A program made the translations under genes and the position numbers. A stretch of 61,525 nt of DNA from Thermotoga sp. (GTDB lineage: Bacteria > Thermotogota > Thermotogae > Mesoaciditogales > Mesoaciditogaceae), in NCBI GenBank assembly GCA_020722015.1, contig DYLQ01000007.1, positions 9,454-70,978 on the forward strand, in the 5' to 3' direction. Positions 60,098 through 61,525 of the stretch are shown here, piece by piece. Within the stretch, counting starts at the first letter, position 1. Every line of letters begins with the position of its first letter. Under the pieces are notes generated by a model that made no database searches, was not told the DNA's origin, and was given only the letters and a program-made list of their open reading frames with translations.

Positions 60098-60590
60098 CGA
60101 ATTCCTCCTTAAGATCTGATAAATCAGATATTCCAAGCGCTTTTAAAAAATTCTCAGTTGTCACGTAAATATATGGATTACCTTTTTTCGTTTTATCCCT
60201 TTTTCTTTTCATTAAACCCATGGATATAAGCTCTTTAATTTGATTTGCACAGACACTTCCTCTAAATTTCTCTATATCCTTGAGTGTTAACGGTTGATTG
60301 TAAGCAACTATTGCAAGTACTTGCATTTGAGAATTTGTGATCTCGCTTACGGATTTTTTTCTTATTTTGGAAACTAAGTCGAAATATTCTGATTTCGTGA
60401 AAAAGGAGTATTTACCGGCGATGTTTTTGAGTTCTACCCCGTGATTTACGTGTGAATATTCTTCTTGTATTCGATCCACAGTTTCAAGAATTTCATTCCT
60501 GTTTCTTTCAGATAATTTCATGATGTCCTGAATCGTAAGACCATGGCCACTCATTATCAAAGCCTCAACCTCAGCCATGATATTGTTCAT
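60042..60590 (-). CDS. scpB: Segregation and condensation protein B
   Basis: Winged-helix kleisin partner in the SMC-ScpAB condensin. 182 residues; EALIMSGHGLTIQDIM, the two winged-helix blocks (LAIVAYNQPLTLKDIEKFRG and GLMKRKRDK) and the conserved GNPYIYVTTENFLKALGISDLSDL. ATG 60590 (GGTGG upstream) overlaps scpA; an ATG at 60578 is possible. The last 18 codons overlap rluB and encode its Shine-Dalgarno site. Confidence 0.95.
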   Translation of the reverse strand: MNNIMAEVEALIMSGHGLTIQDIMKLSERNRNEILETVDRIQEEYSHVNHGVELKNIAGKYSFFTKSEYFDLVSKIRKKSVSEITNSQMQVLAIVAYNQPLTLKDIEKFRGSVCANQIKELISMGLMKRKRDKTKKGNPYIYVTTENFLKALGISDLSDLKEEFVENTKISEDVWNSVPPES

Positions 60591-61251
60591 TTATAACCAC
60601 CGTCTCTTCCGAATCGATGAATATGAAATTTAACCTTAAAAGTTCAAGAATTGTCACAAAAGTAACGACTGCTTCAAGTTTATCATCCGATGTTCCAATT
60701 ATGTCGCATATTCTCATCTTTCTGCTTTTGATGATCAACGATTTAACCATTTCAATTTTCTTTGAAAAAGAGTAAAGGTCTTTGGTTATTCTGTAAACTC
60801 TTTTTCTCAGGTTTATTTCCTGCTTAACCGAGTTGATTATTTTCATGAACACTTCAGGCAGTGAATCATTCATTTCACGGGAAAAAGATGGTAAAATTGA
60901 TATATCAAACTCTTTCATATGAAGTTCATAAAAATTCTCAACCTTCTCAGTCGTTGTTTTAAGGAGAGAATACTCATAGAGCTGTTTGGCAATTTCTTCT
61001 TGCCGTTCAATGACATCACGAGAGGGATTTAAAAGCATCTTGGATTTTATCTCCATCAAGGTTGAAGCCATCAGTATAAAATCCGAAGTTATTTCTATAT
61101 CTACTTTGTCCATTTTTTCAACATATTCAACAAATTCATCGGTTATCTCTGATATTCTAAGATCAAGTGGATTCATTTTATGCTTTTTGACGAGAAAAAG
61201 TAATAGATCAAAAGAACCCTCAAAACTTCCAGAATGAAAATTTATATCCAT
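60571..61251 (-). CDS. scpA: Segregation and condensation protein A (kleisin)
   Basis: Kleisin bridging SMC heads. 226 residues; SFEGSFDLLLFLVKKHKMNPLDLRISEITDEFVEYV is the typical N-terminal SMC-neck-binding region, and the C-terminal winged helix (VVTFVTILELLRLNFI) is present. ATG 61251 has no clear ribosome site: the sequence just upstream (about 61261-61308) belongs to the iscB element. scpA is therefore the first gene of the scpA-scpB-rluB unit in the window, and its native leader may have been lost. Confidence 0.95.
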   Translation of the reverse strand: MDINFHSGSFEGSFDLLLFLVKKHKMNPLDLRISEITDEFVEYVEKMDKVDIEITSDFILMASTLMEIKSKMLLNPSRDVIERQEEIAKQLYEYSLLKTTTEKVENFYELHMKEFDISILPSFSREMNDSLPEVFMKIINSVKQEINLRKRVYRITKDLYSFSKKIEMVKSLIIKSRKMRICDIIGTSDDKLEAVVTFVTILELLRLNFIFIDSEETVVINEQYHG

Positions 61252-61266
61252 TTATCACAAAAGGTT

Positions 61267-61308
61267 GGTGCTAGAAGCTATGCCGTTTTAACGGCAGAAG
61301 GCAGCACC
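61267..61308 (-). mobile_element. Right-end hairpin of IS200/IS605-type element
   Basis: Imperfect hairpin: outer arms GGTGCT (61267-61272) and AGCACC (61303-61308), inner perfect stem TGCCGTT (61281-61287)/AACGGCA (61290-61296). IS200/IS605 ends form such subterminal hairpins read by the TnpA transposase. It covers the last codons of the iscB remnant and lies 16 bases from the scpA start. Confidence 0.55.
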
Positions 61309-61412
61309 TCTTTTGTTTCCTCCTTTCGTCTCAATTTATCATACTGCCATCCATCTGCTCTTTTTTCTGTGCATGGCATTAACGCTTTGTGTTTGTCCAA
61401 CACAAATACCAA
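61278..61412 (-). pseudogene. iscB: Internally deleted iscB remnant
   Basis: A 44-codon frame on the minus strand opening (TTG) with MVFVLDKHKALMPCTEKRA, the N-terminal PLMP motif of IscB RNA-guided nucleases, and preceded by GGAGG. IscB should continue with a basic RLLLERGRA segment, the RuvC-HNH core and a PLMP/TID end of about 400 residues. Instead codon 20 onward reads DGWQYDKLRRKEE to KTA and stop, resembling the family's C-terminal RADGY-type tail. The gene seems to have lost its middle by a clean in-frame deletion at the RA dipeptide. No nuclease domain remains. Confidence 0.75.
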
Positions 61413-61525
61413 GTTAACTCCTCCTTTTGGAGTGCCCTTACGGGCCTTGTGACGCTGCTTTTACAGTCTCTCCTCGCCAATGTTATCCCAACTTTTTACG
61501 TCTGATACACTGCTCGCAACCACCG
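61413..61525 (-). ncRNA. HEARO / omega RNA, 3' part (cut by window edge)
   Basis: Directly upstream of the iscB remnant, where omega RNA always lies. On the minus strand the last bases hold compact hairpins: CTCC-AAAA-GGAG (61432-61421) and GCCC-GTAA-GGGC with a GNRA loop (61445-61434), preceded by GGCGAGGAGAGACTGTAAAAG and GCAGCGTC. This agrees with the conserved 3' half of HEARO RNA as I remember it. The 5' half, including the guide region and left end of the element, lies beyond 61525. Confidence 0.65.

What the first reader, a model, noticed from the sequence alone, without database searches (positions are those of the whole stretch)
61267..61525. Omega RNA kept while iscB is reduced to its two ends
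The minus strand carries the 3' part of a HEARO/omega RNA, an IscB N-terminus (PLMP motif, 19 residues) joined in frame to a short IscB-like C-terminus, and an end hairpin. Nuclease domains are missing. This looks like a non-autonomous mini-element mobilised in trans, or an omega RNA domesticated beside scpA. The clean in-frame junction at RA|DG suggests deletion between short repeats rather than random decay.
Basis: partly seen in the sequence, partly recalled or inferred. Interest (0 to 1): 0.78.

Follow-up and report, generated by a model that had tools for sequence, protein, structure and literature searches.

The report
Guide-RNA-keeping miniature IscB transposon
The end of this window holds part of a tiny mobile DNA element that has lost its IscB scissor protein but kept the DNA ends and, as far as can be read, the guide RNA; at least two copies with the identical deletion sit in this bacterium, and related species have independently made very similar miniature elements.

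Summary
The minus strand at 61525-61259 is the right part of an IscB/HEARO (ISC, OMEGA) element. It carries the omega-RNA 3' end, 19 IscB N-terminal codons fused in frame to about 25 C-terminal codons, and a right-end hairpin. It stops exactly 5' of a GTGA in the scpA ribosome-binding site. The window edge is the contig end. The left end lies on contig C30, next to trpS, so only about 80 nt are unassembled. Sister species have trpS-GTGA-scpA with no element, which argues against domestication. The genome holds about 11 such insertions. A second copy with the same deletion precedes a CoA-transferase gene, also at a GTGA that is empty in a sister species. So the deleted form moved, with transposase supplied in trans. 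Across 103 genomes of the class, 31 of 74 full-length HEARO RNAs lack an IscB N-terminal domain nearby. Omega-RNA-complete mini-elements recur in seven genomes besides this one, in 3 to 13 same-deletion copies in three of them (13 in Defluviitoga tunisiensis, which has no intact IscB and no Y1 transposase). These resemble PATEs (IS605 deletion derivatives) but keep the whole guide RNA. That IscB uses these RNAs in trans to retain the elements is inferred, not shown.

The parts
61462..61525 (-). 3' part of the omega (HEARO) RNA; cut by the end of contig C62
   Evidence: RF02033 positions 149-211, 5' truncated; complementary helices with left-end contigs C59/C36/C48
61356..61412 (-). IscB N-terminal remnant, 19 codons (TTG start, MVFVLDKHKALMPCTEKRA)
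   Evidence: local alignment to IscB of G085, 0/300 shuffles as good; NF040563 guided_IscB 1-20, E 0.062
61356..61363 (-). AAAGAGCA at the deletion junction, shared with the C-terminal side of the C56 copy; possible short direct repeat
   Evidence: C56 match begins at 61363; sequence of C56; N-terminal side inferred from the conserved EKRA motif
61278..61355 (-). IscB C-terminal remnant, 25 codons and stop, in frame with the N-terminal remnant
   Evidence: 25/27 identical to the C-terminus of the C56 IscB; same junction in C52
61267..61308 (-). right-end hairpin of the element
   Evidence: DNA fold, z -3.7; conserved in the right ends aligned
61259..61525 (-). all of the mini-element that lies in the window (267 nt of about 420 nt)
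   Evidence: right boundary set by the empty site in G001; left end on contig C30 next to trpS
61255..61258 (-). target / transposon-adjacent motif GTGA, part of the scpA Shine-Dalgarno region, present before insertion
   Evidence: empty site TTCTGAG^GTGATAAATG in G001
60571..61251 (-). scpA, the gene downstream of the insertion
   Evidence: ORF; orthologues in 12 relatives

Best explanation
This is a non-autonomous deletion derivative of an ISC (IscB/OMEGA, IS200/IS605-type) transposon, about 420 bp long. An in-frame deletion of about 1.2 kb removed RuvC, HNH and almost all of iscB. It left the left end with the omega RNA, 19+25 codons, and the right-end hairpin. The shortened element then moved to at least two places (upstream of scpA and upstream of a CoA-transferase gene), each time directly 5' of GTGA, using a transposase supplied in trans. 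Shown: anatomy, shared junction, empty sites, copy number. Inferred: that a Y1 TnpA did the moving. Inferred, about 40% likely: that the omega RNA, carrying the left flank as guide and RTGA as adjacent motif, is loaded by IscB made from a longer copy and helps keep the element by cutting the empty allele.
For: Same junction at C62 and C52, 92% identity, unrelated flanks. Sites empty in sister species: trpS-GAG^GTGATAAATG-scpA and AAG^GTGATCGAGATG for the CoA-transferase. The left end lies on C30 beside trpS, flank ...TTTCGAG. About 11 left and 11 right ends in the genome. A longer IscB copy with HNH on C56, and an intact IscB of another lineage on C151. Independent mini-elements with full HEARO RNA in G001, G030 (3 copies), G063, G066 (4), G084, G087 and G025 (13). 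31 of 74 full-length HEARO RNAs in the class lack RRXRR within 400 nt.
Against: The full element is not on one contig; about 80 nt between C30 and C62 are unassembled. No Y1 transposase was found in this genome, so present mobility is not shown. No full-length IscB of this family is assembled: C56 stops at the contig end within HNH. No RNA data.
Confidence: 0.82

Rival explanations
1. Plain decay: an ordinary ISC insertion at scpA lost its core after insertion and is now an inert scar; the second copy is coincidence or a duplication.
For: Many deletion scars exist in the class, including ones that also remove part of the omega RNA (C36, C88, C133, G085 L183-L185). No transposase found in the genome.
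Against: An identical junction at two loci with unrelated flanks, each with a sister-species empty site, is not expected from independent decay. Same-junction families of 3, 4 and 13 copies occur in other genomes.
Confidence: 0.1
2. Assembly artefact: the junction joins two unrelated repeat copies at a contig end.
For: Most copies lie at contig ends of a 166-contig assembly.
Against: Two contigs carry the same junction with independent substitutions on both sides. The same architecture exists in single-contig genomes (G030, G063, G025).
Confidence: 0.04
3. Domesticated omega RNA that regulates scpA, or a functional 44-residue peptide.
For: The insertion replaces the GAG half of the scpA Shine-Dalgarno; the frame keeps a good start region (AGGAGG upstream).
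Against: Site empty in three congeners. Flanks differ between copies. The peptide differs at several residues between C62 and C52. No sign of conservation at one locus.
Confidence: 0.04

Closest known systems
PATEs (palindrome-associated transposable elements) of Haloquadratum, deletion derivatives of IS605-type transposons (PMC3119063)
   Same: Transposase-free, no terminal inverted repeats, subterminal palindromes, no target duplication; some arose by repeat-mediated core deletion, some expanded as homogeneous multi-copy families, even where intact IS200 transposases are lacking
   Different: PATEs derive from TnpB/IS605 elements and some keep only fused ends; these derive from IscB elements and keep the complete 5' omega RNA
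ISC transposons / IscB OMEGA systems (Kapitonov et al., Altae-Tran et al.; from memory, papers not held)
   Same: Same ends, RNA, target motif and coding ends as full IscB elements of the class
   Different: Nuclease domains deleted
Standalone (IscB-less) omega RNA loci reported with IscB systems (Altae-Tran et al. 2021, recalled from memory, not verified here)
   Same: Omega RNA without an adjacent iscB, possibly used in trans
   Different: Here the locus is a miniature transposon with a defined deletion and a right end, and it is multi-copy
HEARO RNA, RF02033
   Same: Full-length matches of 102-162 bits in the relatives' mini-elements
   Different: The window itself contains only model positions 149-211

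Membership tests
ISC / IscB OMEGA element (autonomous nuclease-bearing form) | Intact IscB with RuvC and HNH | tested here: not met
   44-codon frame, no Pfam domain; 19+25 codons only
ISC / IscB OMEGA element (autonomous nuclease-bearing form) | HEARO/omega RNA upstream of iscB | tested here: met
   Partial match in the window; left half on other contigs; complementary helices. The complete RNA on one molecule was not seen
ISC / IscB OMEGA element (autonomous nuclease-bearing form) | Insertion next to a fixed short motif without target duplication | tested here: met
   GTGA at 10 of 11 right ends; empty sites; ATGA in relatives
ISC / IscB OMEGA element (autonomous nuclease-bearing form) | RNA-guided cleavage | not testable with these tools
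   Needs biochemistry
PATE-like non-autonomous IS200/IS605 derivative | Too short to encode a transposase; subterminal palindromes; no terminal inverted repeats or target duplication | tested here: met
PATE-like non-autonomous IS200/IS605 derivative | Multiple copies of the deleted form at different sites | tested here: met
   C62 and C52 here; 3, 4 and 13 copies in G030, G066, G025
PATE-like non-autonomous IS200/IS605 derivative | Mobilised by a Y1 (IS200-type) transposase in trans | tested here: inconclusive
   No PF01797 match in G000, G001, G025, G039; present in G030 and G085. G000 is an incomplete assembly
Domesticated omega RNA | Conserved at the same locus across species | tested here: not met
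   Empty in G001, G002, G003

The most novel reading that the evidence does not exclude
Mini-ISC elements that keep the whole omega RNA are RNA-guided parasites. The guide RNA itself, used by IscB from other copies, is what lets the deleted elements persist and multiply, so deletions that spare the omega RNA spread while those that damage it stay single. In the class, 4 of 12 RNA-complete deletion types are multi-copy against 0 of 13 RNA-truncated types (hand-classified after the fact, Fisher p about 0.04).
Probability: 0.3. Interest if true: 0.75.

Novelty: new variant of a known kind. Interest (0 to 1): 0.52.

Why it matters
Whether the guide RNA of an OMEGA transposon can serve elements that no longer make the nuclease is hard to test with intact transposons. 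These natural mini-elements separate the two: RNA, ends and target motif are present, the nuclease is gone. They recur in several genera, some with single-contig genomes, at a compact 332-346 nt in five families, which makes them ready substrates for trans-mobilisation and trans-guiding tests.

Tried and rejected
Gathering-threshold Rfam searches of the window and of the first loci found nothing, because every copy there is cut at contig ends or deleted; the evalue mode and left-end contigs resolved this.

Searches for non-autonomous IscB elements in the literature library gave no direct report. The key ISC/OMEGA/HEARO papers are not held.

Domestication was considered and rejected on the empty site in three congeners. 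A protein-coding role for the 208-codon remnant in the 13 G025 copies was rejected: the frame is open in only 8 of 13 copies, and changes fall almost evenly on codon positions (15/17/20). Stronger conservation of the omega RNA core than of that remnant (2.35 versus 6.45 changes per kb per copy) is only suggestive: copies are related, and the first 60 nt vary most.

Pairing C52 with its left-end contig failed.

A helix-length shuffle test of the left contigs against the window piece was not decisive by itself (the longest helix was reached by 11-21 of 500 shuffles, and that longest helix is not one the model predicts); the argument rests on two further helices lying where the model puts them.

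Full report
WHERE IT IS. The window is G000:C62:9454-70978 of a 166-contig, 1.93-Mb assembly (96% complete), and its last base is the last base of contig C62. The element is therefore cut by the assembly and cannot be read further in place. In the window it occupies 61525-61259 on the minus strand (267 nt). The next four bases, 61258-61255, are GTGA, just upstream of the scpA start at 61251.

WHAT IS IN THE WINDOW. The HEARO covariance model matches 61525-61462 at positions 149-211 only, 16.2 bits, truncated at the 5' side. That is weak alone. The 44-codon frame begins with 19 residues that align to IscB residues 1-20 (MVFVLDKH-KALMPCTEKRA against MVFVLDKNKKPLMPCSEKRA; 0 of 300 shuffles as good). 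The only NCBIfam hit is the start of guided_IscB. The last 27 residues are 25/27 identical to the C-terminus of another IscB copy in the same genome, on contig C56, which is open for at least 228 residues from the HNH domain on. Relative to a 440-residue relative the deletion spans residues 20 to 417. The hairpin at 61308-61267 folds better than 199 of 200 shuffles and is the same in the eight right ends aligned.

THE MISSING HALF. A left-end query finds 11 left ends in the genome, matching the 11 right ends; almost all sit at contig ends, as expected for a repeat. One left end (C59) matches HEARO 1-156 with 62.2 bits. The piece in the window forms with the left-end contigs the two long helices the model expects (GTTATCCCAAT/GTTGGGATAAC and CGTCTGATAT/GTATCAGACG). 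trpS, the neighbour of scpA in relatives, lies at the end of contig C30, whose last 80 bases are a left end. C30 and C62 are therefore very probably the two sides of one insertion, with about 80 nt missing and a total length near 420 nt (estimated from the C59 copy).

EMPTY SITES. In the closest relative, G001 (ScpA 88% identical), trpS runs into scpA as ...TTCTGAG GTGATAAATG; G002 and G003 are also empty. The element sits exactly 5' of that GTGA. The second copy with the same deletion, on C52, sits 5' of GTGA before a CoA-transferase gene, and G001 is empty there too (...GTAAG GTGATCGAGATG). GTGA follows 10 of the 11 right ends. No target duplication is seen. This argues against domestication as an old scpA regulator and shows that the deleted form was mobile.

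OTHER DELETIONS IN THIS GENOME. C36 is a complete short copy in which the omega RNA is cut at about position 160 and joined to the C-terminal end. C133 joins about 100 nt of omega RNA to the middle of iscB. C88 is a 240-nt derivative of the second ISC lineage. C151 holds an intact IscB of that lineage with a 161.9-bit HEARO RNA. So deletion of iscB is frequent, and the window's type is the one seen at two loci.

THE CLASS. In 103 genomes of the class, 74 HEARO RNAs exceed the Rfam cut-off and 31 of them have no RRXRR (IscB N-terminal) domain within 400 nt downstream; a few of these are cut by contig ends. Reading them shows miniature elements with the full RNA, a few codons or none of iscB, the right-end hairpin and ATGA: G001 (337 nt), G030 three copies (332-337 nt, 91-94% identical), G084 (346), G066 four copies (339-342 nt, 94-96%), G087 (345), G063 (393 nt, about 26 N-terminal codons kept, the closest in style to the window). 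Their RNAs score 102-162 bits. G025 has 13 copies of an 895-900 bp form (97.7-99.1% identical to the reference copy) with full RNA and the first half of iscB deleted. G025's chromosome length, 2,053,097 bp, equals that of Defluviitoga tunisiensis L3 (PMC5684752). It has no intact RRXRR protein and no Y1 transposase, so its elements are now stranded.

HOW IT PROBABLY WORKS. Shown: ends, motif, shared junctions, empty sites. Reported for the wider family (peel-and-paste by TnpA; nuclease-aided retention for TnpB; PMC11870625, PMC12477157): single-strand transposition and recovery of the lost copy by an RNA-guided cut. Inferred here: a Y1 transposase acted in trans on the hairpin ends, and omega RNAs from mini-elements, whose guide is the left flank and whose adjacent motif is RTGA, could be used by IscB from other copies. 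Against the last step: no RNA data, and no full IscB of the same family assembled. In favour: deletion types that keep the whole RNA include all the multi-copy ones (4 of 12, against 0 of 13 RNA-truncated types; p about 0.04, classified by hand after the fact, and detection by the RNA model favours complete RNAs).

WHAT IT IS CLOSE TO. PATEs of haloarchaea are the same kind of thing for IS605/TnpB elements, including core deletion between repeats and spread without intact IS200 transposases (PMC3119063). IscB-less omega RNA loci are, from memory, already reported. New here, as far as these tools can tell, is the recurrent, compact, RNA-complete mini-ISC as a transposon form. I call it a new variant of a known kind.

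Noticed in passing
G025 (Defluviitoga tunisiensis L3 by length), loci L105-L121: Thirteen nearly identical 895-900 bp ISC derivatives with full-length omega RNA in a finished genome that has no intact IscB and no Y1 transposase.
   Followed up: partly
L013 (G000:C139) 1311-1550: A group II intron (RF02005, 154 bits) lies in or directly beside a HEARO RNA left end of the second ISC lineage.
   Followed up: partly
L125 (G030:C1:1317400-1319300): A 335-nt mini-ISC sits just downstream of a cobalamin riboswitch (93 bits, cut by the locus edge) and immediately before the ATGA start of the next gene, so it may uncouple the riboswitch from it.
   Followed up: no
L016 (G000:C151) and L124 (G001:C66): The same left-flank gene end (...GAACTCAAAGAAGTG) precedes an intact IscB element in one species and a 337-nt mini-element in the other, but the right flanks differ; possible recombination between ISC copies.
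   Followed up: no
mini-elements of G001, G030, G066, G084, G087: Independent mini-ISC families converge on 332-346 nt, as if this were the minimum that keeps the RNA and both ends.
   Followed up: partly
L007 (G000:C111) 56-129: A right end alone, fused to the end of an unrelated gene, with no left end.
   Followed up: no
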